A stretch of DNA of 64,000 bases. Origin: Sipunculus nudus (taxonomy: Eukaryota > Annelida > Sipuncula > Golfingiida > Sipunculidae). Below, piece by piece: positions 5,507 through 38,049 of this stretch. The notes beneath the pieces are model-generated. The model had not been told where the DNA came from. It saw nothing but the letters and a program-made list of their open reading frames with translations, and searched no databases. How positions within the stretch are numbered: the first letter of the stretch is position 1; each line of letters begins with the position of its first letter. The stretch is from the NCBI GenBank assembly GCA_026874595.1, contig CM049310.1, forward strand, positions 36,533,558 through 36,597,557, in the 5' to 3' direction. A program made the position numbers and the translations under genes.

Positions 5507-7485
5507 TCAACCCAATTTGCCAATGATGTCCCATGTGATGAACGACAAGATGGAAGCTATAGAGACAGACACCACGAACATTCCAGCGTCAATATCGAGG
5601 AGTAAAGCACTGGTCACGGCAATCATGATTACTGCGCAGAAGAAGAGTAACGCAGTTTCCGAAATTCTCGAAGATGTCTTTTGCGTAATGTCTCTTTTCT
5701 TGGCACAAACAGTGGAATAAGCGGTCACATGAGATGCACCTTGTGGCGCCACCTTGCTTGGTTCTCTAAAAGCGTCCTTTGATTGTTCTTTGGACATTGT
5801 CTCCACTGCTTCAGTGACAAGAGACTCTAGTTTTCGTGCATCAAGAGGAACCTCTGCCATTGAGCTTGGGACAGTTTCCTCGAGACGCTGCACGTCAGGC
5901 ATTATAATTTCAGTTTCTAAATAACCCTTCATGTTTCGAGTCGTATCCTGAGCGGTATTGTTAACGTCTGTTACACCAGATGGCGCTGCAACCGGCATAG
6001 TGTATTGATCAAACAGAGCAGATGCATAATCACGAGGGTCTATGTCGCCAGAGGGCAGTACCTCTGCCTCCAGCTCCTTTTCATTGATTTCACCAAGCAT
6101 ATTATAATCATCGTCCGACGCTTCCACGTCATTCACATGTTCCTCTGCCTGGACCTCTGCTTGCTGCAACTCATCAAGAACCTCTTCCCTAGTTTCAGCC
6201 ACAATGTCTGTAGGAACTTCTTGTTCTCTAGCTACCTCAGCCGAAATCAAATCTTCAGTTTCGATATTTTCCGAGGCCGCTGGTACTTCTGAAACTTCTG
6301 GTTCTGTAACTTTCTCGGCCGGAATCAAATCCTCAGATTCCATATTATCCGCTGCAATGGCCGGCGGCGGTTCTTCTGGTTCCGCTTCCGGTTGTTCATG
6401 TGCCTCTATAACGGCTTGATCGTGATCTATATCCTCTACTCTATCAACAGGTGTTTCCTCTGGTTCGTACGCTTGTTTTCCTTGTTCCTCGGTTAATGTC
6501 AGTTCATCTAGCGTGTCTTCGGGTTGAGTCTGTGGTTGGCTTTGCTCATCAGCCTCATTTATACTTTCATCAAGAACTTCTGTGTCTGATTCTGTTATTT
6601 CCAAAAGCACTTCCTGTTCAAGAATTTCTGGCGAGGTTTTCTGTTCTATGAATTCTTGTTGCTCTTTCTGCTCCGGTATTTCTACTGGTATGTTCTTTGA
6701 CATGGTTTCTTGGGGAGTTCCCAGCTCGTGCGTTTCTGGTTCAGTTTCCTGTACCTGTGCGCCCTGTGGCGTGTCCTGTGTTTGTGTTTCTGGTTGCGCT
6801 TCCTTTACCTGTTCGATCTGTGGCGTTTCCTGTTCATACGGTTTTTGTTGAGCTTGCGTTTCTGGTTGAGTTTCCTGTACCTGTGCGTCCTGTGGCGTTT
6901 CCTGTACTTGTGTTTCCTTTGGTACTTCCTGTCCCTCCGTTTCCTTTTGCGTTTTCTGTTCACGTGTTTCTTCCTGTGTTTCCTGTGCTGTCTCCTGCAC
7001 CGGCCTTTCTGTTGGATTTATCTGTTGCTGCATTTCTGTAGGATTTCCCGGTTGCATCATTTCTGTAGGATTTTCCGGTTGCATCATTTCTGTAGGATTT
7101 TGCGGTTGCATCATTTCTGTAGGATTTTGCGGTCGCACCATTTCTTTTGGATTTTCCTGTTTCTGCTGTGGCCGTGGGTTTCCTGGTATTTCTTGTACAT
7201 TATCGTGTTCCTCTATTCCTTTTGGGTTTCCCTCTTTCTGCACTTCATTCTCCTCACGTTTAAATAACGGCGTTTCGTCCGGTCGGATTTCCTGTTCAGC
7301 CTTTGGTAGTTCTTCTTCGGTTTCTATCTGAAGAATATCTCGTTCAATATTCTTGTTTATATCTTGGTTAATATTTTCTTCTTCACTGGATTGTATATCT
7401 GCTGTTTGGTTCACATCCTCCTCTGTCCCGGCAGTCGTAGTATTGGTTGCATCTGGTGCAGCCATATGTTTCTCTGTGGGAATTC
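5507..7485 (-). CDS. Exon 4 (last): Glu/Gln-rich repeats plus C-terminal hydrophobic hairpin
   Basis: The exon begins after the acceptor TTTTTTATTTGACAG (ending 7486) and runs 1979 bp to a TGA at 5507. The frame is closed upstream by a stop inside the intron, and there is no good initiator at the border; the first ATG (7465) would be a start only in an unspliced transcript. Residues about 330-379 of the assembled protein are a decapeptide repeat around NPTEMMQP; 381-480 are rich in QETQ/PETQ blocks; a roughly 30-residue block around ENIETEDLISAE is duplicated. The C-terminus has two hydrophobic segments, about 830-849 (starting TALLFFCAVIMI) and 855-874 (starting GMFVVSVSIASI), separated by DIDAG. 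This suggests a tail-anchored hairpin with the acidic region in the cytosol. The long frames on the opposite strand are shadows of low stop density. Confidence 0.85.
7012..7155 (-). repeat. Coding 30-bp minisatellite
   Basis: About five 30-bp units on the plus strand around CATTTCTGTAGGATTTT encode the decapeptide repeat NPTEMMQP(Q/E/G) of the last exon. Confidence 0.85.
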
Positions 7486-8079
7486 CTGTCAAATAAAAAA
7501 TGTAGTTTGTAAATCAAACGAACTAAAGAATACTGCATAAATTAAGCAGGTGCATAGGAGTCATTTAAACTGTCACTTCCTGTTCAAGCTGTTCCTCCTC
7601 TTCACGAGAAACTAATGTACAGTCGTGTTACTACAGGCCGTACTGTGTCGAGACTCCCACTGCGTCACCTATGGGACATGGTAAATACTACGGGCTTGTT
7701 TTATTATGATAATGGTGGTCCCATTATTGATATAAGTGTAAGTTTCACTGAATGTATTGGTTACTGGTGGAATTAAAAGAGGTTAGACCCATGTTATGAA
7801 TTATTGTTCATTTTTAAAATTAAAATAAAATTATTCCAAAACAGTGTAATGGTATAAAAATGTCGTCAGTGAGATCAAAGCTCGTAAAAGCTATCGCCAC
7901 ATGTGAAAATGTTGGACTAAGGGGGTTAAAAATTAGGATCTAAAAATTCAAATATACGATTTTAATCAAATAAAATGATTTTTATCATTTGAATTTGTTT
8001 ATATGATCACGCTTCATAATATAACAGATGAAAAGTAACATGTACATCACATAATACACAGGAGATAAAGGAATGTTAC

Positions 8080-8112
8080 CTGTCACTTTTCCACGGTCTT
8101 GTTTGTTAGTAG
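8080..8112 (-). CDS. Candidate 33-bp phase 1-1 microexon in intron 3
   Basis: On the minus strand ATACACAG, preceded by a TAACTAA branch-like motif, is followed by 33 bases and then GACAG/GTAACA. Read in the phase of the flanking exons it encodes the hydrophilic ATNKQDRGKVT and keeps the frame open between exon 3 and exon 4. The pyrimidine tract is poor, and a 33-base open frame arises easily by chance. It is offered as an optional cassette only. Confidence 0.28.
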
Positions 8113-8742
8113 CTGTGTATATTTTAGTTATATACACTAAATATTATCTATACATATTGTTCCATTTCAAGCAATAAGATAACCATTCACATGCAGTTTA
8201 ACAGGAATAGTCTGTTAAATCAAGTCTATTTCAGTAATGTGCCAGTCTACATGCAAATGTGTCCATCATACATGTAATAATTAGTATTCATGAAAACGTA
8301 TTACACTATATGCTTTATGAACATGTTTACAAACAGCGTATCTTTGCATAAGTATCGACGCATTATATACAAGTATTTTTTCATCAAGAGACCATTCCAA
8401 ACAGGAAATTGTTGCTTGCACACAATTTGCTCGAGGATATTATAAACGCCTCTACAAGTGGCTTTTAGCTATGAAAACATGTATCTTCACAAAATGCCAT
8501 ACCCATGGCCGCAAATTTCTTGTTTTGATGGAAGGATCTTCATAATTCATAAATATTGTAAAATATGTACGGTGAAACAGAGATATCGGCATCGTTTCAA
8601 GACTGCGTTGTATTATGGACAATTTTCCTCTGTAATTGTTTGCCCTGTCTTAAACGTGTAATATTTAAACTTAGTGCGCATTCTTGAAAGTGACCATTCT
8701 CTTTGATGAAAAGCGTTTCAAAGCATAACAACACATCATGTT

Positions 8743-9746
8743 ATAACCAATGGGTCTCGACGCTCGGCAGAATTTGTCTATAAGTAAATGATTATGAGCT
8801 TTTTCAAATTGTGGGTCCTGTGAACTTGACCCTTGACTTTGTGACAGAAAAATCTGAGAACTAAGTATCTTTGATCTTGCAGCATTTTGATTGTCATAAC
8901 AATCTTTTAAAAGAAGTGTGTCAAGTGATCTTGACCTTTGACCAAGTAACCTTAAAATCTACATATTTGTTCCACTTTGGGCAGGTAAGCCATATGTGAA
9001 AGATAGGGAGATTTGGGATGAAAAGTTTGATTTATAATGCATCCACATTTTTTGTGATGTGGGCCCTGTGTTCGTCATCTTTGACCTCAGGACCCAAAAA
9101 TCAAAATGATTCTTACTTTATTGGTAGGTCTGAAGCCATTCTGCCTATCCAAACCAGAGTTATCATCCATAAACTAATTTGCGGATGGGCCCTTTTACCT
9201 TGACCTTTGATCTTGTGACCCTAAAATCAAAAAGAATCTTCCCCTATGGGCAGATGAGCAAAACATGGAATATGGAAGATCTGTGATTGCTTAAAATGCA
9301 TGTACAATCTTTTTAAAGAATGGGTTCTATGACCTTGACCTTTAACCTCATTATCCCAAAATCAATAGATTTCTTACTTTTGTGGTGGGCCATAAATAGG
9401 CCAAGTTTGAAAGAACTATGTCAAACCAAAATAGAGTTATAATCTGGAAACTTATTTTTTGGACCTAGACCTTTGACCTTGTGTTCCCAAATTCAATAGG
9501 CTCTTCCCCTATTACCAGGTCAGCTATATGCACAAGATGGAAGATTTGGGATGAAAAGTTTGGCTTAAAATGCATCTACAATCTTTTTTAAATAAGTGGG
9601 CCCTGTGACCTTGACCTTTAACCTGATGACCCCAAAGTCATTAAGACTCCTGCGTCGTGGTGGGCCATACACAAATACAAACTGGAGTTATCATCTAGAG
9701 CCAAATTTATGGGATGGACGGACGGACACACAGACGGGCAGACGGA
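8743..9746 (+). mobile_element. Pearl-like element with tandem core
   Basis: The start ACCAATGGGTCTCGACGCTC resembles the pearl-like 5' module of copy A. It is followed by about seven degenerate units of roughly 130 bp around CCTTGACCTTTGACC, in a higher-order period near 266 bp (GGGATGAAAAGTTTG at about 9016 and 9548). It ends in a GGAC/AGAC tract at 9714-9746. The usual 3' hairpin end is missing because a SINE begins here. Confidence 0.55.
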
Positions 9747-9749
9747 GCA

Positions 9750-10085
9750 TGGTGCGTGGTGGCGTAATGGATAGGGCGCTGGACTTGTGACCGTGAGGTT
9801 GTGGGTTCGCGTCCCGTCCTGACCGCCGTCTGCGCTAAGACTCCTAGGCAAAGTGTTTACTCTCGACCCAGGAGTGAATGGGTACTGGTCATTGGAGGAA
9901 GGCAAATGGAAAATTAATAACATTCTAGCGCCTGATATGGCTGCTTGGGTTCTATGCTTTCCAGGGAGCCGGGAAATACTACAAGAATGAACAGGCCCGA
10001 AAGATCAAGAAGGCGAAGTGTAAAGTCGGATGAGACTGACATCGTCGGTGATATCAGACTATAAACCCCCACCTTTACCTTTAAG
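9750..10085 (+). mobile_element. tRNA-derived SINE, family 1, copy 1
   Basis: The tRNA-like head has box A GTGGCGTAATGG and box B GGTTCGCGTCC. The body carries CCCAGGAGTGAATGGGTACT and ATGAGACTGAC, and ends near ACCTTTACCTTTAAG. The same body occurs inverted at 53188-53516. The reverse-strand peptide DGTRTHNLTVTSPAPYPLRH is translation of the SINE head, not a gene. Confidence 0.75.
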
Positions 10086-10329
10086 ATATAGGGCATCCAC
10101 TTGTGATCAATAAACCCACCAGGTTTCGGGACACTAGATGAAACCACAGCTAAGAAACTGACATGATTTCTGTCATTTTATAGACTAAACACAAGATAAA
10201 AAATCGTAAAAATTATAAAAAAATACAGGTGGCGCCACCAGTTTTCGGGAACTGACAAAACTAGTCATGGTCAACATTCAAGGCCAGATTCATGACAATC
10301 TATGCATTAAATATTAAGATACTGGAGGT

Positions 10330-10573
10330 TATGTATCAAATTTTTAATTGATCTTGGGGGGTGGGGGCAGTTACAAGGCCAAAAGCTCGGAGGATATAGG
10401 TCGTAGTGACCTAATTTCAGGTTTCCAAGGAGATTTTTTAATTTACCACTATTCATTTAACTTAGAAATTTCTATGATCAATGGTTACGATTTGTTAACG
10501 TTGCTAACGGACGGTCGATCAGACAAAGCGCCATACCTATGCCTCAGTTGACTTTCAGTCAGCTGAGCTAAAA
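10330..10573 (+). mobile_element. Pearl-like element fragment, copy D
   Basis: It shares AATTTTTAATTGATCTTGG, the ACGGACGG tract and the end GTCAGCTGAGCTAAAA with copy C in opposite orientation. No 5' module was found. Confidence 0.5.
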
Positions 10574-11420
10574 ACGTTATTGATACAAATAGTAACAGCG
10601 TCTCGACTGGTACCCTGCTCATGCACATATAAAAATTAATTCTTCGAAGTTCCTGGTAAAGACAAATAAAATCTAATTTTGCACATTGATAAAATACAAC
10701 ATCAGGTACTCCTTAAGTTCAAACTGTTCTTAAAAATCCAACGTAATTTTCTTGGTATCTATTCTTGATGCAAGCCTAAATTTTTTGTGTATGTAAGGAA
10801 ATGCATGGGCCTGAACAAGGTACCACTTTAGTAAGGATTATAGTTAAGTCTCCACGAGTAACACGCCTATCATCAAGTTATTCTTCACCAACCAAAAGTT
10901 TGCACAAGCATAAATATAGCACTGATTAACTGTTAGTAATGTTTATCATTTGTCGTTTGTGTGATTGTGATCAAGACAAAGGAAACGAGTGCTTTTTACA
11001 CTAACAGCTAATGTGTCGACAGTCTGATCACGTGAGCATCTATGCGCTCTTCACGTTTAGATATTGACACTATACACCACCGTGAAACCGTCTGTTTGCT
11101 CCAGGTATTTGATCAACAGTTACCGCTGCGAACTACGACCGCCTTCACAATCCAAGGTAAAGAAACAGCTGAATTCATTTGATCAAACTTTCCATTTGAA
11201 ACCAATTTAATGCAAAAATATTCTAAAAACTCTTTACAAGTTCCGCTGCAAATGTGATATCCATACACGAAAATTAAAATAGGCAAAGAAGAAGCACGAA
11301 AACGGGAATAAAGCATCGCAAACTTGAACGTTTTACACATATTACTCTTGTTTCTTTCTTTTGTTGTAAAAATGGCTTTTTCTTAGTCTGGATTGTGATG
11401 GCGTAGTCTAAAGCTGGACT
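10574..11420. other. Intron 3 sequence, unannotated
   Basis: Nothing recognised up to the X-box pair. CTCGACTGGTACCCTGCTC at about 10603 resembles the foldback arm at 39505 over 20 bases. Confidence 0.3.
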
Positions 11421-11453
11421 GTTTCCCAGGCAACCATCTGCGGCCATAGCAAC
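11421..11453 (+). promoter_or_regulatory. Twin RFX X-box-like motifs
   Basis: GTTTCCCAGGCAAC at 11421-11434 (reverse GTTGCCTGGGAAAC) and GCGGCCATAGCAAC at 11440-11453 each match the X-box palindrome GTTGCCATGGCAAC-type consensus at about 12 of 14 positions. RFX factors bind such sites in promoters of ciliary genes across animals. The pair lies about 120 bp upstream of a good plus-strand splice donor at 11575. The sites sit in a short GC-richer patch. Binding and direction are inferred. Confidence 0.42.
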
Positions 11454-11479
11454 GCTGCGCCGGCTTACCGATTTAATTT

Positions 11480-11574
11480 GTCGTCTTGCCAGCAAAACAA
11501 CGGTGTAGGTCCACTCCTTGAATTAGGAAAATTGTTTATAAATGAACTCCTTTAGATAATGCAAACTCATAAAG
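11480..11574 (+). other. Candidate noncoding first exon of a nested plus-strand gene
   Basis: The donor ATAAAG/GTAAGA at 11575 follows the X-box pair by about 120 bp. No coding frame with a start is convincing here, so a 5' UTR exon is the simplest reading. The start is a guess. It lies inside intron 3 of the minus-strand gene. Confidence 0.3.
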
Positions 11575-11710
11575 GTAAGACTAAGCCATTTAAGAACATT
11601 GTTTACAACTTCTTTTATGCTGACAAAGGAAGCTGGCATTTTTATTTCCCCCTATTTATATGGCATTTGCAGATATGAAGTTATATATAGCTGATGTACA
11701 ACAAACACAC

Positions 11711-11714
<4 letters not shown>

Positions 11715-11763
<49 letters not shown>
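11715..11763. repeat. (GA)n microsatellite
   Basis: An uninterrupted GA run of about 49 bp between the nested-gene exon candidates. Confidence 0.95.
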
Positions 11764-11766
<3 letters not shown>

Positions 11767-11943
11767 AAGTGTCATGAAGACTTTTCATTTTAACTTATCG
11801 AATGGTACGAAGGTGTCTTCTAATACCTGCGGCCACACAGTCCGCTGGAAAACTGTCTGGATTTTGGAAACTTGTTTGGAATTATTTCAAGATACAGTTG
11901 TAGAAAGTTCTGGGGATAATATTAGTATGTATTAATTTAGCAG

Positions 11944-11992
11944 AGGTCATATAACATGGCACTGGCTGAGAAGTTAAATGAGCAAACTAAGG
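11944..11992 (+). CDS. Candidate start exon 1a of nested plus-strand gene
   Basis: The acceptor ATTAATTTAGCAG is followed by a 5' leader, an ATG in good context (AACATGG) at 11956, the peptide MALAEKLNEQTK and a donor AAGG/GTAAGA, leaving in phase 1. The peptide is hydrophilic and helix-like. I do not recognise the protein, and no downstream phase 1 exon was identified, so this remains an exon candidate. Confidence 0.33.
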
Positions 11993-12474
11993 GTAAGAAC
12001 ATTCCGTTTAAACGTGGGGACAGTTAATTAATTAGTATTATATCAGTAACTGGGGAACTGTTACTAAATTAATTTTTGTTATCATATTACAGCCGATTAT
12101 ATTAATAAGAAATATTAGTATATATTTGTATTTCATTCCAATCAACAATAGACTTTAGGCATGTAATTGAAAATATGGTAATTTCACAGATCATTATTTT
12201 GTACAGTTAAAAAAAAAGATTCTCATTGGGTGCTGTCCAGTAGTAACAGAAACTGAAACGTCGTAAGATCAGCGCAACTTCGCAGATAATGTACATAAAT
12301 GCCAGATGGCTCAAACAGTGCCCGGAATGCACGTTTAAAGCCCTCATATTTAATGATATCTACAGTATTGCATATATATATACGGGAATTTTCGGAAGTT
12401 TAAAAGCCGCAAAAATCTACAATTTCCTTCATAAGGTTCGGTGCCTATTTAAAGCAAGTTGACTTAGGTAGCAG

Positions 12475-12541
12475 TACCAAACCATGGGAGGCCCAAATAT
12501 AATCTTATCTAGGAGCATGCATGGGACACGAAATATGATTG
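12475..12541 (+). CDS. Candidate alternative start exon 1b of nested plus-strand gene
   Basis: ACCATGG at 12482-12488 is a perfect initiation context. The frame reads MGGPNIILSRSMHGTRNMI and ends at a perfect donor, GATTG/GTAAGTC, again in phase 1. The acceptor (GACTTAGGTAGCAG) is mediocre. Spliced after exon 1a the frame would close at a TAG, so 1a and 1b look mutually exclusive: two starts feeding the same downstream phase. Confidence 0.33.
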
Positions 12542-13029
12542 GTAAGTCTATATCCTTTAATAAATCAACATTGAATTAATAAAGATGTCCATGCGATATA
12601 CTCATAGCTCTCTTCCACCATTGGACCTTATACAAATTCATTTGAATGAAGACTTTTAAATCATGGCATTCGACTAAATTAGTCGCAGTTTATCATTTTT
12701 AACGCAGATACTGTAAGTTCAAATCAAACAACGTATCTAATATTCATAAACAGCAATTTTTGGGAAAAGTATGAGAGCCAATAGGTTAGGAGGCATATAT
12801 ACATGTAAATTGGCAACGAAATTAGGATTACTCTGTATACAGATCGCAACAGTTTGTGGATAACGCTACGACTCCTGCCAGCTAATGTTCCCAGATATAA
12901 GTTATGTTTTTCGTATAACGTGGTAAATGAAGTTGTACTTGGTGTACGGAGCCGCAGGGCATGAAGTGGTACTTTATATACTTAATATACATATAATTCT
13001 TATTATATTTCGGTTACAGGTAAGGATAC

Positions 13030-13254
13030 CTTGAAAAACAGGGACCGGTGAGTCGTCGGCTGATTCTTCCTTCTCTTCCAGGAGATTGATTTCCGGTTGG
13101 CTTCGCCTCTTGTCTATGTAGGCATGCACGTCTTTCTCCTCGTCCTTCTCCTCCAAACTGTACTGCTCCTTGATGCTCCGGAGATGAGGAGGCTGAGAAA
13201 CTGCGTGGTCAGCGTTTTTTCTGGGCTGATAATCCAGCGGCCTCATGTTTTCAC
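13030..13254 (-). CDS. Exon 3: charged acidic linker
   Basis: This 225-bp phase 1-1 exon encodes 74 whole residues, from ENMRPLDYQPRK to ESADDSPVPVFQ. The acceptor is GACTTTTCTTGAAG (ending 13255) and the donor CAAG followed by GTATCC. The stretch EEKDEEKDVHAYIDKRR and the later LLEEKEESADD are strongly charged and likely disordered or helical. It has no recognisable domain. Its frame joins the Ig exon (...LQVK-G-ENMRP) and the last exon (...PVFQ-G-IPTEKH) without a stop, which is the main support for the exon. An alternative acceptor about 30 bp upstream would add a few residues but has a poorer pyrimidine tract. Confidence 0.68.
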
Positions 13255-14185
13255 CTTCAAGAAAAGTCGCATGCATGCAGTGCAAGGAGCTGCTATTTTT
13301 TATCTCCCTATACAGTTATTTACAAACATGCCAAGCCGGGGTTTGCTGTTACTGATACAAAAGTTGGGAACGATAGTTATCTAGATTCTTACTACCTAGT
13401 ATACTTTTCATTAAATTTATACTCAGGTGCAATAATTTCCTGATTGGATCATATGTAACGATTGATACCTGGGCTAAACGTTTAAATCGAAGGCTTACAA
13501 TTTGGCACCCTAATCGCACTTCAAGAGAACACTTGTCGGATTCAATAGCCAGCGCCATACACTGATTATTCTGTTTAAACAGTATCCACGCATTAGAAGT
13601 GTATTGTCATTAAACTTGATCACTTACGAATGGACAGGCAAAAATGGAAAAGCAAAAATTTAAGTATTGTGTTCAGCAAGAAAAAACCAAGATGGTGCTG
13701 CTTTTTGATCTTTCCAAAATGAACCAGCAGAAGTCTTAGTTAAAAATGTGCATGGCATCTGTTATTCATTATTTCAATATTCACGCCGAATCGAAAAGAA
13801 ACTTGGCTCAGAGCGGACACGTAGGACAATAGCTAACGCTAACAAGTAAATGAGGAAGTATTAGGAAGTAATAACAAAGGCCAATCAAGTTACTCAATTC
13901 TTTCGTTAAGGCTAATGACTGATATAAGTGGATATGTGTTACTCAAAATAGTGAAGCCGTTTTGGTGATTTCACTTAGACTGATGTGTATTTATACATGC
14001 TAACTAGACTATTATCAATCTATGAACAATCTAGTTGTAGTCCTGTCCTAGCTAGTACGTCAAAACTGCACCTGAAAAACAGGAAAGGTAGGATCCAGAC
14101 TGATAAACCATGATTCGATTCTATAATGTCCAGGGTATTTTGCACTCATTTTTTTTCTAAAAATAAAATGAAAAAAAAAAAAAAT
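13255..14185. other. Intron 2 sequence, unannotated
   Basis: No repeat or exon was recognised. Confidence 0.35.
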
Positions 14186-15733: not shown

Positions 15734-15967
15734 TATACTCTTTATCTTAAACTTCAGATTGGTTTTTAAAATAACACCTTGTTATGTTATCACCACCAGG
15801 CATTTCATTCTTTTGGTTGTCTGTCATTATTTAACACCAAGCCTTATTATAGGCTTGATTTACAGGTCTTCAAACGGCAGGGCTTTCATTGATATCGCAT
15901 GGAGAGTGTACTAAAGTCTGAATCTGGATCCCATCTCCAACCAATTAGTATATCTACGGGTTAGTAC

Positions 15968-16246
15968 CTTTGACCTGAAGATAGCCCGTTGAGGAGGTGG
16001 ACCCCTCCTCATTCATCAGTCTACAACGATACGTGCCTTCGTCCCATTTCTGCGCCTCCTTGATTAACAGCACGAGGTGCTGACCTTCTTCCTTGAACTT
16101 GATATTGTCGTTCGGACTTAGTTCTATGTCATCTTTAAACCACGTGACCCCAGGGCGTGGCAGACTCTTGAACTCGCAGACCAGTTCCACCGATCCCCCC
16201 GCCTGAACTTCAATATATGGTTCAAGACGTTTCGTGAATTCTGGAG
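15968..16246 (-). CDS. Exon 2: immunoglobulin I-set domain
   Basis: This 279-bp, phase 1-1 exon encodes one complete I-set Ig domain. The acceptor reads TTTTAATTGCAG (ending 16247) and the donor AAAG followed by GTACTAAC. Translation starts PEFTKRLEPYIEVQAGGSVE. The domain hallmarks are all present: B-strand Cys in LVCEF (residue 75 of the assembled protein), the core Trp in GVTWFKDD (87), and the F-strand motif DEGTYRC with Tyr124 and Cys126, closing with GYLQVK. The sequence resembles the muscle I-set class (titin, obscurin, palladin, myosin light chain kinase) rather than secreted receptors. Such domains usually bind cytoskeletal or sarcomeric partners. Only one Ig exon is seen, whereas muscle giants carry tandem arrays. 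Confidence 0.88.
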
Positions 16247-17505: not shown

Positions 17506-17564
17506 TTACTGTTAACGTGTTGAGTTGAAAAGTAAACCTGACATATTTTGTATGCCTTTAATGT

Positions 17565-17577
17565 CCCCCCCCCCCCC
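17565..17577. repeat. Poly-C tract
   Basis: A run of 13 C. Confidence 0.95.
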
Positions 17578-17968: not shown

Positions 17969-17970
<2 letters not shown>

Positions 17971-18030: not shown

Positions 18031-18034
<4 letters not shown>

Positions 18035-25600: not shown

Positions 25601-25710
25601 AACAACTTATCTGTATAATCTGAATACAATCAGATAAATTTAGTAAACAGAAAGCACTGAATCAACAAAATTGATAAAGTCTGGTTAAAATGTTTCTCAT
25701 AAATGTTATA

Positions 25711-26832: not shown

Positions 26833-28375
26833 TATTTACTTGACTAAATATTAAATTAACTCCCTAATGTAGAAATAGATAGTGAATAATTGCACAGTTA
26901 CTATAGACAACATAAAATAATGCAGAAACACGCAGAGATATGCATACTGTATACGTTGTGTTCCTGCAAATATTTAACAATTACCAATGCATATCAAATG
27001 AGTAGACAATAAAAATAAACAAACAAAAAGATAATCAAATGAAAAAAAAGATAAAAACAAAATAATACGTAGGGATTATGAGCTGGGGAAATGTGCCGTA
27101 AGAACGTTTAGTGAACAATTACAATATAACAGTTATATAATGCAATGTTCATATAATCAAACCGCAATGCTGATAAGCTGTTCTCCGTCTGAATATTTTT
27201 ATTAAATGTTGATTTTTTTGCTCGGGCTAAATTATACAACTTATGTTTAAACATAAGTGTGGTTATAGTGTAACTAAATAAAAAAGATAACAGAAAAAAG
27301 ACACGCACTGGAAAACATTTTTAAAAAGAATAAGAAAACGTTATAAATCGTGCTTTCGCTAAAGCAACTTGTTTCAAATCTGGTCAAGACTGTTGCGTCG
27401 AGAACTTAATTAATGTACGGTATCTGGGAATGTGTTCATGGTAATCCGTCTTGGAAATTGTCACGTTTCTATTGAGATCTCGGGTTTCATGTCAGGAATG
27501 ATTTCCTGTGGCTGGTCTCGTCTCTGTCTGGAGACTACCCATTTTAATATCGTGAAGATACGTCTCAGTAAAACTGACACACAAAACGTACGTCACATAA
27601 GTATCTTGATCATATATTGAAAATTATAAATAAAAATAAATATTAATCTATCTGGAACTAGACTGTTGATGTAGAATCCACGGTAATCACATTTCTAATG
27701 ATAGATAATGTAATCTTAAATGATAGAACCGTCGTCCATGACAAACATGTAAATATATGATTAATGTCACAGCTTCTTGACAGATGTTGGTCATAACTTA
27801 GATATAAACTACTTTAAAACGTATTATTAACCCTGTAAAATAAAAACTACTCTGGTGGATTTTACATCAACAAAATATTCGTCCAATACAGGCAAATCCT
27901 GGATCATCTTCTGATTTTTTCCTTGCTTTGATTTAAAGCTCTGGATGATGCTGTATGATAGAGTCTTCATTTTTTATGACAAATCAAGTGTCTCCAGCTG
28001 GCACTGTATTTAACGAAGATGAAGGTGACCACATTTCCGAATAACATGTTATTAAGTTTTCAGAAGTACAAGTTTCCGATGCTTGTTGTTAGGGGAGTCC
28101 TCATTCCTATCTCCTGTCCTTTCTTTATAACCATTTTATCAAGTTTCGTTCTCTAACTCTTCTTCCTTATTTCTTGCATGTACTACATCTTTTCTTTATC
28201 ATTGTCTATTTTTCGTTACGTTCTTTCTTGTATACTTCAGTTTCCATTTTCTTAAATTTACTACTTTCCTATTTTTTTTCGGTATGGCTCGATTGATTTG
28301 TATGGTTTGTTTATTCTTTATCGCTTCTATCCGTCTTCCTGTTTTTTTTCTCTTCTGTCTTTTCGTTATGCTCTA
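26833..28375. other. Intron 1 sequence, unannotated
   Basis: No supported feature. Confidence 0.35.
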
Positions 28376-28737
28376 TCATCTATTCAGTTTCTGTCCTTCT
28401 TTCTTGCTTGCTTTGTCCCTCGCGCTTTGTCTTTCTTATCTTGATGCTTTATCATCTGTTCAGTTTCTGTCCTTCTTTATTGCATGGTTTGTCTCTCACG
28501 CTCTGTCTTTCTTGTCTTGATGCAATATCATCTATTAAGTTTTTTGTCATCCTTTCTTGATTGCTTTGTCTCTCACGCTCTGTCTTTCTTGTCTTTATAC
28601 ATTATCATCTATTCAGTTTCTGTCCTTCTTTCTTGCTTGGTTTGTCTCTCATGCTCTGTCTTTCTTGTCTTGATGCAATATCATCTATTCAGTTTTTTGT
28701 CCTCCTTTCTTGCTGACTTTGTCTCTCACTCTCTGTT
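28376..28737. repeat. 76-bp minisatellite
   Basis: Five units start at 28376, 28452, 28528, 28605 and 28681 with TCATCTATTCAGTTT and the internal TCTGTCTTTCTTGTCTTGATG. The array is pyrimidine-rich on the plus strand. The hydrophobic frame across it is a by-product of T-richness. Confidence 0.85.
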
Positions 28738-31669
28738 TTCAAATGTTTTTATCCTATTCTTTCTTATTTTTTCGTTCCTTACACATTTAGTTAACTCATG
28801 GTCCATTAACCAAAATCTGCCCTCACAAAATCGGCATCTTGGAGGAAAATTTTGTATGCTCATTAAATTAATATTTGGCGTTTTGGCCTCTGTTTATTTT
28901 TCAAACTTTTCCCTTGAGCCAAGTTCTCTCTTTCGCCCTTGGGAAAGGTTTATGCAGTTATCAAACTGTGCCAAGCACCTGCCATGCTGCTTATACTACC
29001 TTCTTGAAAGAAGATAACGCTTATTTCAAGTGGGCTACACAAGAACCGAAAGCCCCAACATACGGTTTCAATAGTTAGCGAATTCACTGAGGGCGACCTC
29101 ATTATTTTCTTATCAATATGAAGCAATCTGTTAAAGCCTAAAAGACTGCCGTGATTGTTTAAGGTACATGGATTCCAATGACATGCTGACCTTCCGGGAC
29201 TCCTCATTAGCCTTCTGGCGCCAGACTTCTCGCAACTCCATTCATTTTCTCGTAAAAATGGCAAGGGCAATTTCAGGTGCTACGTTCTGTTACTACAAGT
29301 TATTAGCACTTGCGGGCTGCAAAATTATTAATTGTTTTAAGAGAAAAAAAAGAGTCTGTCAGTCTATTTTATTTTCCTTCATGACTTTTAGGCAATATAC
29401 GAATTGATACATCATCTATATGAACGTTTTCATACTGAATGTGATATGCAAACGAAACTATAACTTGGAACTTCCATTTTGTTGAAAATTTACAGTTCTT
29501 TAGAAAAATGATTTCATAACGGTTTGCTAGGCCAAGAACGTAACGTGCTCACGGAATAAGCTATTTAAAGCTATTTAAGCTATTTTATTATAAAATACAC
29601 AAACAATACCTCCTCATAAAAACATTTGCTGCCGAAGCAGCACTGATTGAGCCTTAAAAAAGGTAGAAATATATAACAGCAGGTCCACGGTTTGTAAATT
29701 AAAGATACAGAAAAACTTTCTAGATCTGTGCATGGTAGCGGACAATACTTATACAAAACAATATTAACCATCTAGTCATTCTATCATTTCTTCGATTGTG
29801 TATAGAATAAACTATTAATGGGTGTGTATATACCCGAGGAAAAAGCATGCAGTTCGGCAGGTATTATAATAATATGGCAAACCCAGGCATAAAAATTACA
29901 ATAAATAATAAAAGTAAGCTTAGCCAGGTGAGCTAACCATGAGATACACCGTGCACTTAATTGAAAGAACACTTAAATGAATGTGTTAGAAGAAAATTAT
30001 CATTTATATCCGGTAGGTGAGGAAACCGTAAAAATAGACCTGTGGTGCCAATTAAAAAGTTTATCCATTGGCATATAAACGAAAGTGATTTTAACAATTG
30101 ATTAAGAATGCGAGACAAGTGAGACCAACACTAACGAGAGGATCCTGATTTTACAATTTGAAGCATGTGACTTTGATAAATAGTTATTGAGACAAGATGT
30201 CACGTGGGGAAGGATCACGACAGGGGAGACAAATAAACGGACGGAGCAATATGAAAGTGACTTCCACGAGTCACCAATGACCATGGACCAGGAAACACGT
30301 TTCATCAATGTAAAAAATATGGAAAAACAAGCTTGAAAGGGTTAACATAGTTAACTTTACATATTTAAAAGTGTCAAACAACAATACACGTTTTAAATGG
30401 TCAAATCAGTTGACTTTACAGGTTATACAGGTGTCAAACAGTTGAGAGTACATATGTGTCAACAATCTTGATATTACAGGTGGTATAACAGCTAAAATGT
30501 TCAGAGTACCAGGTATTAAGTGACTTAAAAAAGGAAACAGCGGTATATTTTATTTTCATAAAAAGAAAATATTTTAAAATTGTTAGATCAAGGTACCAAT
30601 GAAAAACAAGTACCTATTCCTTACACCTGTTTAATCTCTGCAAAGAGGTTAGGTTGTGTTTTGTATAAATTCATAAAATATGTATTGAGAATTCCAATTT
30701 AACGTTGTGGACAGCTAGTTCATAGATGAATAGCCATAACTACATTTTAGATTACATTTACATGTAGATCCATCAGTACACACTGCACCTGTTGTTAATG
30801 TCACATCCAGTCAGTACCTATATTAATATCAAGTATGTCTGGCAGGTAGCAGTAGCGCAGGTGTCACATTTCATCTAAATAAATGGATTGGTGTGCGAAG
30901 CCACTCAGAATTCAGGATTAATCATGTTGTTGTTCGCTCTGTAGCTTCAAAGTACAAGGCACCAACCTGTATCCTACGAGCAAACCGCAAAAAAAAAAAA
31001 AAAACAACTTGCTGAAACCACGCGTTGAATCCTTCAGCTCTTTCCTCATGCAGCTGCTGTCTTTGCCTGAGAATTAAGTGTCTTCTCCCCTCTCAACCCC
31101 TCCCCAAATTAACATTCAAAAGTATCATGTTTATATTTCTAAAGAAAGGATCTTGATATCCAGTATAATCATATAACAGATATAACATAAATAGAGGAAG
31201 TATGACTCTCGCGTAGCCGATCCTGCAGTATGTCGTCATCAAAATAAATCAAATAGATTACTATATGTGAGAACTACCGTATTCTGTAACCGTAGCACTG
31301 TGCGATGGTATGACCCGTATTCTCGTAATGTGTTTGTAATAGTATACTTATATTTAGTCAAATTCATTATCACACCACTAAAAAAATTTTTTAATGATAT
31401 TTTATTTATTATATAAGATTTACGTGTCTGGTACACACCTTTGAATAAGGTATCAAAAATTGATTCTGTTGACTGCCATAGCATATGCGCTTATTTATTC
31501 TTCATATAATGTATGCCTAACAAACAACGTTCGTCACGCCTAGCTCCTACAACGCCTGCGTGTACATAGTATACCTGCATTACGGTGGAGTGAATGTGGT
31601 ATTAGCGAATTAAGGCAGTTACCAAACAACACCTCAATGATTCGAACTAGAATATCAGCAGAAGCTGAC
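28738..31669. other. Intron 1 sequence, unannotated
   Basis: Around 30340-30520 short units of about 65 bp with GTCAAACA and GTTGACTTTACAGG recur weakly. No gene was recognised. Confidence 0.35.
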
Positions 31670-32688
31670 AAAAGCCCTCAGCCAAAACAACAGTGTTTAG
31701 AGGTGGTAACAGTAACAAGTACTAAATATCTGTTCTCACATGGATGTATATCTGTACATGTCTAAGTTATAAATTTAAAAAGCAGAGGTATGTACCATGA
31801 TTCATAACAATCCACCAAATGCTTCCTGAAAAATAAGCTTCTAAGTTTTATTCTATTATAAGCTCTGTGACCTTGAAAAGTAGGTCAAGGTCACCCATCT
31901 TCGAACTTGACCGAGATTTTGTAGATATACGTCTTCACCAAAGAAATAAAATTCCTCTTGTGAATCCTTTTAGAGATATCCCGCTCACAAGGCCAAAGTT
32001 GAAAAATCCAAGAAAAATTCATTAAAAATCAGAAATTGCAGGTGGCGCCCCCAAACTTGTGCAGCAGTTACAGACCATCAGTCCCTATGATCATAGTAAA
32101 AATTGTGAAAATCCACCCAATGGTTTCTGAGAAATAAGCTTCTAAATGTTTTTTTCTATAATCAGCTCTAAAACGTAGAAAAATAGGTCAAGGTCACCCA
32201 TCTTCGAACTTGACCGAGATTTTGTCAATATACATCTTCACCGAAAAAATAAAATTCCTACGGTGAATCCTTTTAAAGATATCCCGCTCACAAGCCCAAA
32301 GTTGAAAAATCCGATAAAAATTCATTAAAAATCAGAAATTGTAGGTGGCGCCACCAAACTTGTGAAGCAGGTACAGACCATCAGTCCTAATAATCATAGT
32401 AAGTTTTGTGAAAATCCACCAAATGGTTCCTGAGTAATAAGCATCTAAGTGTTTTTCTATAATCAGCTCTAAAATGTAGAAAAATAGGTCAAGTTTCACC
32501 CATCTTCGAACTTGACCGAGATTTTGTCGATATACATCTTTACCGAGGAAATAAAATTCTGACGGTGAATCCTTTTCAAGATATCCCGCTCACAAGGTAA
32601 AAGTTAACGGACGCCGGACGGACGGACGGACGGACGGACAGCTTGGGTGACGACAATAGCCCATCAGCCTAGGGGCTGAGGGCTAAAA
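31670..32688 (+). mobile_element. Pearl-like element with 302-bp tandem core
   Basis: The start AAAGCCCTCAGCC is the inverse of the end GGCTGAGGGCTAAAA. Three core units begin near 31882, 32185 and 32486 with AGGTCAAGGTCACCCATC; the third is cut short by (GGAC)n at 32608-32640. The unit also carries GGTGGCGCCACCAAACTTGTG. Same layout as the 8743 and 14186 elements, different sequence. Confidence 0.65.
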
Positions 32689-32861
32689 AGTCTGTGGAAT
32701 CGAAACCAAAGAAACGGTATTCGAAACCGCTGACACAGCGAATATAAGATGTGGTGCCGCGTGGTTGCGCTGTTCGCGCTTTCCAGGAAGTCCTGGTTTG
32801 TACGTTTTCTCCCTAGTAAACGTTACACGCTTTGATCACTTTGTATTCGGGTATAAAAACG

Positions 32862-32950
32862 TGTCACTGTGCACTGTCAAATATTCAGTCCTTTGCGTTC
32901 AGAGAGAATCGATTTTTATTGGGTTCATGCAGCCAAAGTAAGAAGTTTGC
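32862..32950 (+). promoter_or_regulatory. Possible core promoter (TATA plus initiator)
   Basis: GTATAAAAAC at 32861 is followed 25 bases later by TCAGTC, an initiator-like motif. An ATG at 32937 precedes a donor-like CCAAAGTAAGA. No further exon was identified. Confidence 0.2.
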
Positions 32951-33566
32951 AGCAGCTTGTTAGAGGTCAGGTGAATCGTCATTTATGAAAAGCAGATATA
33001 TTGACATGCATGAGGTGCTGGTATAGGAGGTGCTGGTATAGGATGAGGAAGTAGAAAAAGCACGGAGGAAGTGCAAAAGGATGAAGATGTGCAAATAACT
33101 CTAACACCTTAACGCTTGACCTTTTCCTGACATTTCTCTGTAATACTTAATTAGGACAGCGGAAATACCAATTTGCGCGTCCATATTGTGCCTGTGAAGT
33201 GTCATAAACAGTATACAAAGGACTGACATTAAATTATGCGAACCTCTTTCACTCCTCATCTAAACGCGTATACGTTATAAATTAAATACAATTGTAAGGG
33301 TAATTATGAAGTGTAAATAAACTTCCCACTGAATCGCATGAATCCTCTCTGATTTGTAGGACGTGTTCGGTATATACCCCATCTTAATAAATATAATACA
33401 TAAATTTGTATCAGAAGCGCGGTGGGTCCTTGTTATTCGTAAGAACTAGAGACACAATCTACAGATTTATTGTAGCGAACTCGTACTGGCTGCGCCAGGG
33501 CCTCCGAGAGGATTCTTTTAAGGCGGTACAAAAACGTTGTCGGGCCCCTGCCCCCTGCAAGCACTA

Positions 33567-33570
<4 letters not shown>

Positions 33571-33618
<48 letters not shown>
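33571..33618. repeat. (AT)n microsatellite
   Basis: A pure array of about 48 bp. Confidence 0.97.
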
Positions 33619-33622
<4 letters not shown>

Positions 33623-33627
33623 TTTAC

Positions 33628-34362
33628 CAGGCCGGGCCCCCTTTGACACCCCCCCCCCCCCAACCTCGCAGCGATCAGTCTGGATTAAAAGCAGTATAGC
33701 CCTTAAAAACAAATTAAACATATTCCATATTTTATGTATTTAGGTCCAACTTCCCCAGAAAACTTTGGCCGTCTCGAGCCCCTTTGAACGGTCCCGCATG
33801 ATTAAAGTCATACAAAAAGATACACACAAACCAAAAAAATTGTCATTTAAAGTAATTTTTAGACTGATAAATCCTTTGGCCTCCCAAGGCCACCTGACAT
33901 CCTCCTGATTGACAACATACAACCAAATGAAATATACATAGTCCCCGAGACCAATACAACTCCTTGGTGGCCGAGGCCCAACAGACCTCCCTGATTCAAA
34001 ACATGTATAAGTTATTGCAAAAACGAAAGTCTTCCTTATTTTCAGTTACAAGCTTTTTATTGGACAATATATTCACTATAGGGTCCCCTTTGATAACTGG
34101 TTCCACTTTATATATACACGTTAAAATATAATGTTCATGCATTGCATAGGGTCCTGTGAAAATCCTGGTCGGCCGGGCCCTTTCTTTGCATTCCGGAATC
34201 CGGATTAAGAACAATATGTCACTTAAATGAATAATTTAGATAAGTTTTCCATACTTCCAACTTGTTTATGCCTTCTTGGAAATTTTTCGCCAGCCCGGGC
34301 CCCTTTTCGGTCCACGGGGCCCCGGTACGATGTACCGGCTGACCCCCCCCCCCCCCCCCCCC
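33628..34362. repeat. Degenerate GGCC/GGGCCC repeat cluster with poly-C
   Basis: Motifs like CCGGGCCCCCTTTGA, GGCCGAGGCCC and GGCCGGGCCC recur about six times at irregular 90-200 bp spacing, with a 13-C run at 33649 and a 20-C run at 34343. It looks like an eroded tandem repeat. Confidence 0.4.
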
Positions 34363-35441
34363 AGGCCCTGGGCTGCGCAGTCTTCGTAAATGATTCTCGT
34401 CTATGTCCTTGCCATGTCAATATAGCCGCAATTTCCGAAATTTCGTAAACGTCGATATCTTTCCTGTTTGTAGCGCGTAGGGAGCTCAATTCGTAGAAAT
34501 GAGAAAGCCCCTTCAGTGTGTCCTAATGTAACAGAACGGTAGGGAGCCCTAAATCGATCACTGTATTTAGGTTTAGATAATAAATCTCTACAAAATAACG
34601 GCGAATTGTAAGGATATTGTGATTTTTCAAATAAAAAATGATTTCAGTGCTCAATATTCACAATATACATTGATGAATTATGGTCACAGATCCATGCAGG
34701 AAACGTTTTATGCCTAACTTCACTGCACAGTTAATATGGTCCTTACGTATGGACAAAACGTTTTACATGACACGGTTACGATATAACATTTATGTAGTAT
34801 TCAAGTCTTGTAAATAAATAAACCGCGCTGACACGTCCTTGTCATCATCGACCTTAACGCGGTCGATCATCAGAATCATTTAAAGAAGATAAATCTAGTT
34901 GGGTAAAAATTGACTAACATACGAAGCTGTCACGAAACGCTTGAGATCTAACGAATAATCCCTAAACCCAACCTCTTTGGGTCCTAGGTTCTCAACGGGC
35001 CAAATAATGCACGGGTGTATCATGTCTGTGCGTCGGACGCAGGTAATCGGTTGTTTACACACACAGCAGCACCTCATGATCAGCTATTTCATTGCTCACA
35101 TACAAACGCAATTTAAAACGACGAAATATCCGTTGAAAATGACGACGTATTATAATGAAGCCACTTATCCTGTTTCCACACCAGGTTATGAAAATAGCGT
35201 TCAGGGTGTACTGTCATGACAAATATTTCAGATACAATATGTTAACTAGAGGATATGAACTAAATAAGATGAAAAAAAAACACGTACGTGATGGGTACAG
35301 CTGATTATTTATGCAACCAGAGAATGCTTCTTTCACCCGGAGCAGCCGACTACTGCTTTCCGTAGGCAATGTAGATATGACAGAATATTAAGTTCAAACG
35401 TGTTGTGCTCCGCTGGGCCTGCGATATGTGACAGGTCTGAG

Positions 35442-35879
35442 TATAAAAGGTCACCAGCGGTGTCATGATAAACAGAGAAAACAGGATTCCGCAGACAAAA
35501 TGGCGTACGTGTTTACGTCGCATCAAACGACATGTTGTGCATACTGAGCTCATGTGATGTTTTTGACTGCCAAGTGGGACGCAAAACGACGTGGAATCAG
35601 TCCAGATGGGGCTGTTATGCTCACACCATATGCCGTACCACGTGTGCCAAGTTTCTTTCCAGTCGGAAACACTGTTTTTATCCCATGCCGAACGGAGCAC
35701 ATCATGGCTGGCCCGAAAAGAGTGAATGAATCATTATTGCAGATGTTGATGGACCTTCATATGAGTAGTTAACAAAGTCTACCTTATCTTTATATACAAG
35801 ACATATTCCTGATTAAATATGAACAATATTCAGACCTGGAATGTTGAACAAGTCAACTAGTTCTGAAAGGCAGAATAAA
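35442..35879 (+). other. Possible small TATA-driven intronless unit
   Basis: A canonical TATAAAAG at 35442 is followed by a short ORF at 35500 (starting MAYVFTSHQ, 15 codons), a 65-codon cysteine-rich frame at 35532-35729 (seven Cys), an overlapping 72-codon frame at 35554-35772 with WDAKRRGISPDG and FFPVGNTVFIPC, and AATAAA at 35874. Order and spacing suit a tiny transcription unit or a retro-derived fragment. Neither frame is recognised and which, if any, is coding cannot be decided. Confidence 0.22.
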
Positions 35880-36179
35880 TATATTTATATTGAACTGAAA
35901 GGTAAAAAAAGAGGGAGATTATTTGAAAATACATAATAACGAAGAGTTTGTGGATAACGTGTACAATTTTGTAAATAAAATTAAACGTTATCTTATCTTA
36001 TTATATGTTCACAGAGTAATGATAATTCTCATGGACGTATGGCAAATAAAATACCGCAATCCTGCAATGATGTTTGTTTGCCCCATTCTAATCCTGATGT
36101 AAATATACACAAATTATTACGCTAATTATTAATACACATTCATGTTAGTTACACCGACTACCTAGTCGTATGCCGGGAA

Positions 36180-36203
36180 CCCCCCCCCCCCCCCCCCCCC
36201 CCC
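36180..36203. repeat. Poly-C tract (24 C)
   Basis: The longest C run in the window. Confidence 0.95.
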
Positions 36204-36452
36204 GCCCTCCGGTTCCCGCAATGAATGTTTTGCCATGGGTCATGCTGTAATGAAACCTGCCAAGAGCAGACATATGTGTGTTTTATTCAGTATACTGCCA
36301 GGAAAATGGACAATATATGCGTCAGGTATTTTTCTTTGTTAGCAGTCAAAGACATTGCGGATATTTTTTGGCCTGAACGTTATGTGAGCAAATGAGGTAC
36401 TTAAGCCTCCCCTGGTCTTATTGCGGTGTAAAAAAGACAGGCTTACGGAAAA

Positions 36453-36472
36453 TATACATATATATATAAATA

Positions 36473-36513
<41 letters not shown>
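36453..36513. repeat. (AT)n microsatellite, interrupted
   Basis: AT run with a few breaks in the first 30 bp. Confidence 0.9.
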
Positions 36514-36516
<3 letters not shown>

Positions 36517-37300
36517 GTAGAATATATGCAATGTAGTATAAAACAGTCTATGATTTTTATAACTTAACGACTATAATAAAACTTCTGCAGTTGACACTCT
36601 CCTATAAAATAACTTATAATTAAAGTGTCGAGACCAGAAATCGACATATGAATATTAATAGAACAGATAAAGTCACGTGATCTTGGGATACGTCTAAGGT
36701 TCCTCTCAGATAAGCAGGTCCTAACAATACATATGATACTAATTGGATTCCTCAGTATACATTAACTAGTATGGAATGCTGCTGAGTGAGTGGTAATGAT
36801 GTAACACAAAGCCATTAATCAGACCCCAGCATTATTTACTTCTAACACTGGAACATATTGTTTTTGTTTTGTGTACCCCATTCACTGTTTATTGGTCTGA
36901 CCTGGATCATGGATCAAGCCACTTTCCAGTCTTTCTCAACTTGGTTGGTAAGGAACGCCGGTATTAGACTACTTTAAATATAGGAAGTCGTGAACATAGT
37001 ATTTAACATTGTGGGCATACCTCGGGCGCCTGACATATACACGTAACGTTCATAAACCACACAAAACGATCCCATTCCTGTACCAGGACAGGATATAAGA
37101 TTTACTTGTAAATCCTAGCCCGACTACTTTGAAAACATATCCAGCAACCAAACGCCCATGTACACAGGAATGAGCTGCTATTTAAATGATTCAAGTTTCT
37201 GGAATGTACATATATTATATAAGATATTTCCGTTTGTTTCCAATGAAAATATGCTGTGTAATCCTAGGTGTCTCAGAATGATGCTACATGGTACAGTGGG

Positions 37301-37305
<5 letters not shown>
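36514..37305. other. Intron 1 sequence, unannotated
   Basis: No supported feature. Confidence 0.35.

Positions 37306-37359
<54 letters not shown>
37306..37359. repeat. (AT)n microsatellite
   Basis: A pure array of about 54 bp. Confidence 0.97.
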
Positions 37360-37360
<1 letters not shown>

Positions 37361-37482
37361 CTGATATTAGGTAAAATCAATGCTATTTAAATTCTGAAAG
37401 CATTTTGCATTGAGAGTGGGTGCTTTTAAAAAACAAATACTTAAGTATTTAAACTTACTGGACAATATCCATATGTTATGCT

Positions 37483-37485
<3 letters not shown>

Positions 37486-37521
<36 letters not shown>
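37486..37521. repeat. (AT)n microsatellite
   Basis: A 36-bp array flanked on both sides by TGTTATGCTAT. Confidence 0.95.
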
Positions 37522-37525
<4 letters not shown>

Positions 37526-37895
37526 ATGCTATTAAATTATTTATATATATTAATCTATTATATATATGAACATACATAAATAAATAAATACATATATACA
37601 TACCCACATGAATATTACAAAAGATATAAGCGGCTTACAGTTAACAAATAGGCTACAATATCACACAATCCTTTTTCATCTGGTTGAAGCAGACCTCGCT
37701 GAATTAACCTTGTTTAAAAGTCAAGGTTAGTTGTAACGTTAACAACTCTACATGTTTCCATAGAGCGCCGGTCTACCTCCCTAAAACACCACCCAAACTC
37801 CTGCTAGCCAGGGGTCACGACCGCAGGGCGTCTGTGAATAATGTAGCCCCCTGTATTCAGTGACAGACAGACAACATGCAGATTAGCCTACGTAC

Positions 37896-38049
37896 CTTCG
37901 TAGAACCTTTTGCGTATTATCCCAAGAGGTCGCGTTCTAGACAATATTTTTTCTACATCAATGTCCAAGTTATCAATATCTGGCTCCTTAGCGGGTGTCG
38001 TCTGCTCTTGGGTCGGGCACGGCCCCTCCCCCTCGGGATCTGTCTCCAT
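37896..38049 (-). CDS. Exon 1 (first coding exon) of the Ig/tail-anchor gene
   Basis: The ATG at 38049 has A at -3 and G at +4, and an in-frame TGA lies seven codons upstream, so this is the natural start. The exon encodes 51 residues beginning METDPEGEGPCP and ending RPLGIIRKRFYE, then one base of the next codon. The acidic stretch includes DIDNLDIDVEK and is followed by a basic patch. The donor reads GAAG followed by GTACGT, close to consensus. No signal peptide or membrane segment is present, which supports a cytosolic N-terminus. It has no start-to-stop frame of notable length, so a plain ORF scan misses it. Its phase matches the Ig exon 21.6 kb downstream, giving ...RFYE-A-PEFTKRLEP across the junction. 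An intervening phase 1-1 exon cannot be excluded. Confidence 0.65.

What the first reader, a model, noticed from the sequence alone, without database searches (positions are those of the whole stretch)
5507..38049. Cytosolic Ig domain fused to an acidic repeat region and a C-terminal membrane hairpin
Seen: four exons with matching phase 1 junctions give one 878-residue frame with a single muscle-type I-set domain, about 600 residues of Glu/Gln-rich repeats, and two hydrophobic segments separated by only DIDAG at the very end. Known: I-set domains of this type are usually in tandem arrays in sarcomeric proteins. Inference: this protein could tether an endomembrane (for example sarcoplasmic reticulum) to the cytoskeleton. 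I know of no described protein with this order.
Basis: partly seen in the sequence, partly recalled or inferred. Interest (0 to 1): 0.78.

Follow-up and report, generated by a model that had tools for sequence, protein, structure and literature searches.

The report
Membrane-anchored protein with one Ig domain
This animal gene appears to encode a protein with one muscle-type immunoglobulin domain at the front, a long flexible acidic stretch, and a membrane anchor at the very end, so it might tie an internal membrane to the cell's skeleton; transcripts and relatives from other species are still needed.

Summary
On the minus strand, four stretches (38049-37896, 16246-15968, 13254-13030, 7485-5507) join at phase-1 junctions into one 878-residue frame with one I-set domain, a 658-residue acidic last exon, and two hydrophobic C-terminal segments separated by DIDAG. 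The last exon is certainly coding. With a codon model from other Ig genes of this genome, exons 2-4 exceed all background stretches compared; exon 1 is weaker.

No other Ig domain was found in the window or 20 kb either side. The nearest scored I-set hits on that contig are over 25 Mb away (150 of 912 candidates scored), so it is unlikely to be a fragment of a titin-type array. The gene looks single-copy. The N-terminus is hydrophilic and an in-frame stop lies just upstream of the ATG, so the Ig is probably cytosolic.

The first anchor segment is strong, the second marginal; AlphaFold gave two C-terminal helices at low confidence. The SR-tether idea fits but is untested. I could not search animal protein databases, so novelty of the order is unproved.

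The parts
37896..38049 (-). Exon 1 (residues 1-51 plus one base): acidic start, then a basic stretch just before the Ig; an in-frame TGA lies seven codons upstream of the ATG
   Evidence: Translation and upstream frame; donor 5.5 bits; 2nd-best stretch with the exon-4 codon model; equalled or beaten by 1.35% of 1701 background stretches with the independent model; only its own place matched in the own genome
15968..16246 (-). Exon 2: one complete I-set Ig domain (domain 16244-15972, residues 53-143), phase 1-1
   Evidence: Pfam I-set 67.5 bits within the joined N-terminal 246 residues, 70.4 bits for the open frame alone; only Ig above threshold in the window and 20 kb either side
13030..13254 (-). 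Exon 3: 75-residue charged linker, phase 1-1; its removal would keep the frame
   Evidence: Weak splice scores; 3rd-best stretch with the exon-4 model; above all 573 background stretches with the independent model; only its own place matched in the own genome
5507..7485 (-). Exon 4: 658 residues, Glu/Gln/Thr/Pro-rich, ending with the membrane segments and the stop
   Evidence: 668-codon open frame; acceptor 5.1 bits; no Pfam (E up to 1), NCBIfam (E up to 10) or PDB (E up to 1) match
7006..7161 (-). 27-bp (9-residue, NPTEMMQPx-like) tandem array inside exon 4
   Evidence: Tandem Repeats Finder; copies listed
6729..6962 (-). Second internal duplication in exon 4: two copies of about 108 bp (6962-6855 and 6836-6729), 80% identical
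   Evidence: BLAST of the exons against window plus flanks
5597..5653 (-). Hydrophobic segment 1 (residues 831-849), strong membrane-spanning candidate
   Evidence: Approximate insertion energy -3.6 on a recalled scale; helix in the AlphaFold model, low confidence
5522..5581 (-). Hydrophobic segment 2 (residues 855-874), marginal spanning segment, separated from the first by DIDAG (5596-5582)
   Evidence: Best energy +0.3 on the same scale; helix in the AlphaFold model, low confidence

Best explanation
A single-copy animal gene makes an 878-residue protein held in an internal (ER/SR-type) membrane by a C-terminal hydrophobic hairpin or tail anchor, with everything before it in the cytosol. About 600 disordered, acidic residues act as a flexible spacer. 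The N-terminal I-set domain, of the kind found in long Ig arrays of this genome, sits at the far end and binds a filament-associated partner. The protein would thus tether endomembrane to the contractile or cytoskeletal apparatus at a distance. Shown by sequence: the open frames, the solitary I-set domain, the composition and the hydrophobic end. Inferred: exon joining, cytosolic side, hairpin topology. Guessed: ER/SR membrane, muscle, partner.
For: Joined 878-residue frame and upstream in-frame stop. Coding scores. I-set domain, the only one found in the window and 20 kb either side. Of 35 matches to the N-terminal 219 residues in the own genome (150 of 204 candidates scored), 3 are its own exons; of the other 32, 21 lie on C16, which carries long Ig arrays, and the two best are on C16 and in a C1 array. 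Hydrophobic end; two C-terminal helices in the model. Net charge is -14 to -16 per 50 residues over 501-700 and turns to +2 over 801-850, just before the anchor. Precedents: obscurin with sAnk1, and UNC-89 in C. elegans, for Ig proteins organising the SR (12 of 40 passages of PMC12812942); junctophilin for a C-terminal ER/SR anchor behind a long cytosolic part (12 of 26 passages of PMC8934682).
Against: No transcript, expression data or orthologue. Ig donor and both exon-3 sites score weakly. One search did not separate exons 1 and 3 from noise. Second hydrophobic segment is marginal. AlphaFold on a single sequence had mean pLDDT 43.5, 60-67 in the blocks over the C-terminal helices and about 50 at their ends. 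Nothing in the sequence names the ER/SR as the membrane, and no KKxx-type end was found. The two best non-self Ig relatives share only 35-36% identity, and two loci that look contactin-like to me rank 6th and 7th of the 32, so 'muscle-type' is not proved.
Confidence: 0.35

Rival explanations
1. Same protein, but not a muscle tether: a C-terminal anchored protein of the ER or another organelle (mitochondrial outer membrane, nuclear envelope) in non-muscle cells, with the Ig domain as a general binding module; one version is an ER-turnover receptor using a LIR-like site in the acidic region.
For: Membrane type and tissue are unknown. One LIR-like site (DDDYNML, from residue 677) was found by pattern.
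Against: The LIR-like site is a single loose match without a chance estimate, and an Asn follows the Tyr, which stricter motif definitions as I recall them do not allow. The Ig is most like those of long Ig arrays.
Confidence: 0.3
2. The exons belong to two genes: the Ig exon (with or without exons 1 and 3) to one, the acidic membrane-anchored exon to another.
For: Introns of about 21.6, 2.7 and 5.5 kb from the coordinates; several splice sites are weak; joining rests on phase and strand only.
Against: Exon 4 has a good acceptor, so it probably has an upstream exon; all four exons share strand and phase. The codon scans show no other long coding-like stretch on that strand between them, though an 11-codon acidic stretch at 7603-7571 and a 21-codon one at 27526-27464 score 17.8-18.3 and 11.6-12.0 bits.
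Confidence: 0.13
3. The Ig domain is outside the cell: a missed upstream exon supplies a signal peptide and the C-terminal hydrophobic end is the anchor of a surface protein.
For: Many animal I-set domains with both canonical cysteines, as here, are extracellular (recalled).
Against: In-frame stop seven codons upstream of the ATG and no hydrophobic segment before residue 820; no extracellular domain matched in exon 4.
Confidence: 0.07
4. A question of topology, compatible with the best explanation: only segment 1 spans the membrane, segment 2 lies in the lumen or along the membrane, so it is a single-pass tail anchor.
For: Segment 2 has a marginal insertion score of +0.3.
Against: Two helices with a three-residue break in the model, at low confidence.
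Confidence: 0.3

Closest known systems
Obscurin / UNC-89
   Same: Cytosolic Ig-domain protein; links SR to the sarcomere (12 of 40 passages of PMC12812942)
   Different: Giant, with tandem Ig/FN3 and signalling domains (recalled, and in part); binds the SR protein sAnk1 rather than carrying its own anchor; here one Ig only
Junctophilin
   Same: Long cytosolic part and a C-terminal ER/SR tail anchor (12 of 26 passages of PMC8934682)
   Different: MORN domains and a single-pass anchor; no Ig domain (recalled)
Titin/twitchin-class proteins of the same genome (class inferred, not tested)
   Same: Best non-self Ig relatives lie in Ig arrays on C16 and C1
   Different: Arrays of many Ig exons; here a solitary one, with no scored I-set hit within 25 Mb on C5 (150 of 912 candidates scored)
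Glycogen-targeting PPP1R3A (recalled)
   Same: Folded N-terminal domain, long disordered part, C-terminal SR anchor (recalled)
   Different: Carbohydrate-binding domain and phosphatase-binding motif instead of Ig (recalled); no match to an RVxF-like pattern here

Membership tests
I-set immunoglobulin domain proteins | I-set domain above curated cut-off | tested here: met
   67.5 bits against 23.7, profile positions 1-90 of 90
Titin/twitchin/obscurin giant muscle proteins | Tandem arrays of Ig (and FN3) domains | tested here: not met
   One Ig in 104 kb; no scored I-set hit within 25 Mb on C5, 150 of 912 candidates scored. FN3 exons were not searched for outside the joined frame
Titin/twitchin/obscurin giant muscle proteins | Kinase or RhoGEF domain in the protein | tested here: not met
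   No such Pfam match in the joined N-terminal 246 residues (E up to 10) or in exon 4 (E up to 1); the rest of the window was not scanned for them
Tail-anchored membrane proteins | Membrane segment at the extreme C-terminus and no N-terminal hydrophobic signal | tested here: met
   19-residue windows with mean hydropathy above 1.0 occur only at residues 823-878
Tail-anchored membrane proteins | Single spanning segment | tested here: inconclusive
   Two segments, the second marginal
Junctophilins | MORN repeats | tested here: not met
   No MORN match in the Pfam scans of the N-terminal 246 residues, exon 3, exon 4 and the C-terminal 141 residues
Muscle SR tether (function) | Muscle expression, SR location, filament partner | not testable with these tools
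   No expression or localisation data

The most novel reading that the evidence does not exclude
A previously undescribed, one-protein membrane-to-sarcomere tether: a solitary muscle-type Ig domain, acquired on a symmetric phase-1 exon, fused to a disordered acidic spacer and its own hairpin anchor, doing in one chain what obscurin plus sAnk1 do with two proteins.
Probability: 0.2. Interest if true: 0.65.

Novelty: new variant of a known kind. Interest (0 to 1): 0.42.

Why it matters
How internal membranes are held in register with contractile filaments is, to my knowledge, known mainly from vertebrates and nematodes, and in nematodes it is still unknown whether small ankyrins take part in the UNC-89 link (passage of PMC12812942). 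A single-chain tether in another animal would show a different solution and give a simple protein for measuring how spacer length sets the distance between membrane and filament. If it is not a muscle protein, it would still be an unusual arrangement, as far as I know: an Ig domain tied to an endomembrane by a C-terminal anchor.

Tried and rejected
Rejected: fragment of a titin relative; exon 4 as a separate first exon (it has a good acceptor, though a start at the ATG inside exon 4 cannot be excluded); close paralogues in the genome. A weak match of exon 3 to a Myb-like Pfam model (14 bits against a cut-off of 31, E 0.047) and one of the C-terminus to DUF6405 (E 4) are taken as chance.

Led nowhere: viral contig scans with the C-terminus (6 pattern matches, none confirmed) and with the Ig (none); Rfam and tRNA scans of the window; PDB search with exon 4; NCBIfam; haemocyanin search to fix the phylum (controls silent). 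The six paper searches, of which I read only the listings, showed no paper that I recognised as describing an Ig domain with a C-terminal membrane hairpin; most subscription journals are not held and the listings showed only 6 to 10 papers each, so this is weak. I ran no fold search because the model is of low confidence, and no genome-contig scan because that collection holds only bacteria and archaea.

Results against my reading: one search put exons 1 and 3 within the range of 40 shuffles, with a codon model whose training set held antisense frames; one search is the cleaner version. In one search a stretch on the opposite strand of exon 4 (24.9 bits) scored above all shuffles, so that measure also picks up antisense of a coding exon. 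In one search an 11-codon acidic stretch outside the gene model slightly exceeds the shuffles. The Ig profile includes the window's own Ig, so its score there is inflated; the Pfam score is not. For the synonymous count I used five of the eight rows listed and left out the three less regular ones.
Full report
What is there. The longest open frame of the window is 668 codons on the minus strand, 7513 to 5507. It ends with two hydrophobic stretches, TALLFFCAVIMIAVTSALLL-DIDAG-MFVVSVSIASILSFITWDII-GKLG. A good splice acceptor (5.1 bits) opens the exon at 7485. Upstream on the same strand are a 225-base open exon (13254-13030), an exon with one complete I-set domain (16246-15968), and an exon beginning with ATG at 38049 and ending at a good donor (37896; 5.5 bits). 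All junctions are phase 1, and the joined sequence is 2637 bases: 878 residues and a stop.

Is it more than chance? Exon 4 is beyond doubt by length. For the others, splice scores do not suffice: there are 1184 open phase 1-1 candidates in the interval, and the Ig donor and exon-3 sites are weak. Coding composition helps. A codon model from exon 4 alone puts stretches of exons 1 and 3 second and third in all six frames (21.1 and 20.1 bits; maxima of 20 shuffles 11.1 to 18.1), and part of the Ig exon tenth (12.7); but that model rewards acidic residues, and an 11-codon acidic stretch at 7603-7571 outside the gene model scores 18.3. A model from 17 Ig domains in eight other loci of the same genome puts exons 2, 3 and 4 above every background stretch compared (0 of 543, 0 of 573, 0 of 543; overlapping stretches of at most 75 codons) and exon 1 in the top 1.35% of 1701. 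An earlier run with antisense frames in the training set left exons 1 and 3 within the range of 40 shuffles. I take exons 2 and 4 as safe, and exons 1 and 3 as probable. Since exon 3 is symmetric, skipping it would keep the frame.

Is it part of a bigger gene? A profile of nine Ig domains (eight titin domains and this one) finds only this one above threshold among 2159 open segments of the window, and none in 20 kb on either side. In the whole genome (1.43 Gb, 153 contigs; the window is C5:36533558-36597557) the 150 scored I-set hits include this one and, on C5, otherwise only hits at about 5.2 Mb and 62.3 Mb; 762 of 912 candidates were not scored. The C-terminal 141 residues match only themselves (next best E 8.1). 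The N-terminal 219 residues give 35 matches: their own three exons and 32 other Ig exons, 21 of these on C16 (150 of 204 candidates scored). The gene looks single-copy.

Which side of the membrane? The N-terminus is hydrophilic, an in-frame stop lies seven codons upstream of the ATG, and no segment before residue 820 is hydrophobic. The Ig is thus probably cytosolic. Its two best non-self relatives, 36 and 35% identical, lie in Ig arrays on C16 and C1. I infer, without testing for kinase domains, that these are giant muscle proteins; the best PDB matches of the Ig are titin and myosin-binding protein C, though multi-domain chains are favoured by summed scores. Two loci on C1 that look contactin-like to me (L025, L026) rank sixth and seventh of the 32, so 'muscle-type' is likely but not proved on one 90-residue domain.

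The middle and the end. Exon 4 is 17.5% Glu, 10% Gln, 9% Thr and 8% Pro, with 9-residue periodicity (18% self-identity at shift 9 against a mean of 10%, residues 221-820), a 27-base array and a second duplication of about 108 bases. Over all pairs of five copies of the 27-base array there were 28 replacing and 4 silent codon differences, so the array shows no sign of strong protein constraint, as one would expect of a spacer; the sample is small. AlphaFold on the single open frame (exon 4 plus nine residues read from the intron) gives little order (mean pLDDT 43.5) and two C-terminal helices, residues 619-638 and 642-667 of the 668 modelled (829-848 and 852-877 of the protein), with block means of 60-67 over most of them and about 50 at the ends. 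By a recalled insertion scale the first segment is strong (-3.6) and the second marginal (+0.3). A hairpin is the simplest reading; a single pass is not excluded.

How it may work. The anatomy is binding domain, long flexible acidic spacer, membrane anchor. The best-supported guess is a tether between an endomembrane and a structure bound by the Ig domain. [quoted passage not shown] elegans, where it is unknown whether small ankyrins take part (passages of PMC12812942). Junctophilins have a C-terminal ER/SR tail anchor (passages of PMC8934682). Neither has this order. Muscle and SR remain guesses.

Novelty. I could not search animal protein databases, so 'no described protein with this order' stays unproved. 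The six paper searches (listings only, plus passages of two papers) showed none. I rate it a new variant of a known kind, a tail-anchored linker, with moderate interest.

Noticed in passing
window 55744-56232 (-) and L011:992-1405 (+): Two open stretches share a similar peptide (YLNE.LRRP...TSKPARTSTAL), apparently copies of a dispersed repeat.
   Followed up: no
window 7571-7603 (-): Eleven-codon acidic stretch (EEEEQLEQEVT) just upstream of exon 4 that scores like coding sequence; not in the gene model, perhaps chance.
   Followed up: no
window 31809-32596: 2.6 copies of a 303-base tandem repeat, 88% matches, inside the long first intron.
   Followed up: no
window 28374-28740: Tandem array of 76/153-base units in the first intron.
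   Followed up: no
window 9618-10004 (-): Open stretch with the peptide DGTRTHNLTVTSPAPYPLRHHAP, which looks like part of a common repeat element (impression from memory).
   Followed up: no
window 6095-6115 (-), residues 677-683 of the joined protein: Acidic DDDYNML, a loose match to an autophagy-receptor (LIR) motif; no chance estimate made.
   Followed up: no
L023 (G000:C1:84146000-84155999): Array of six Ig domains, several of which seem to lack the usual second cysteine; it holds some of the closest relatives of the window's Ig.
   Followed up: partly
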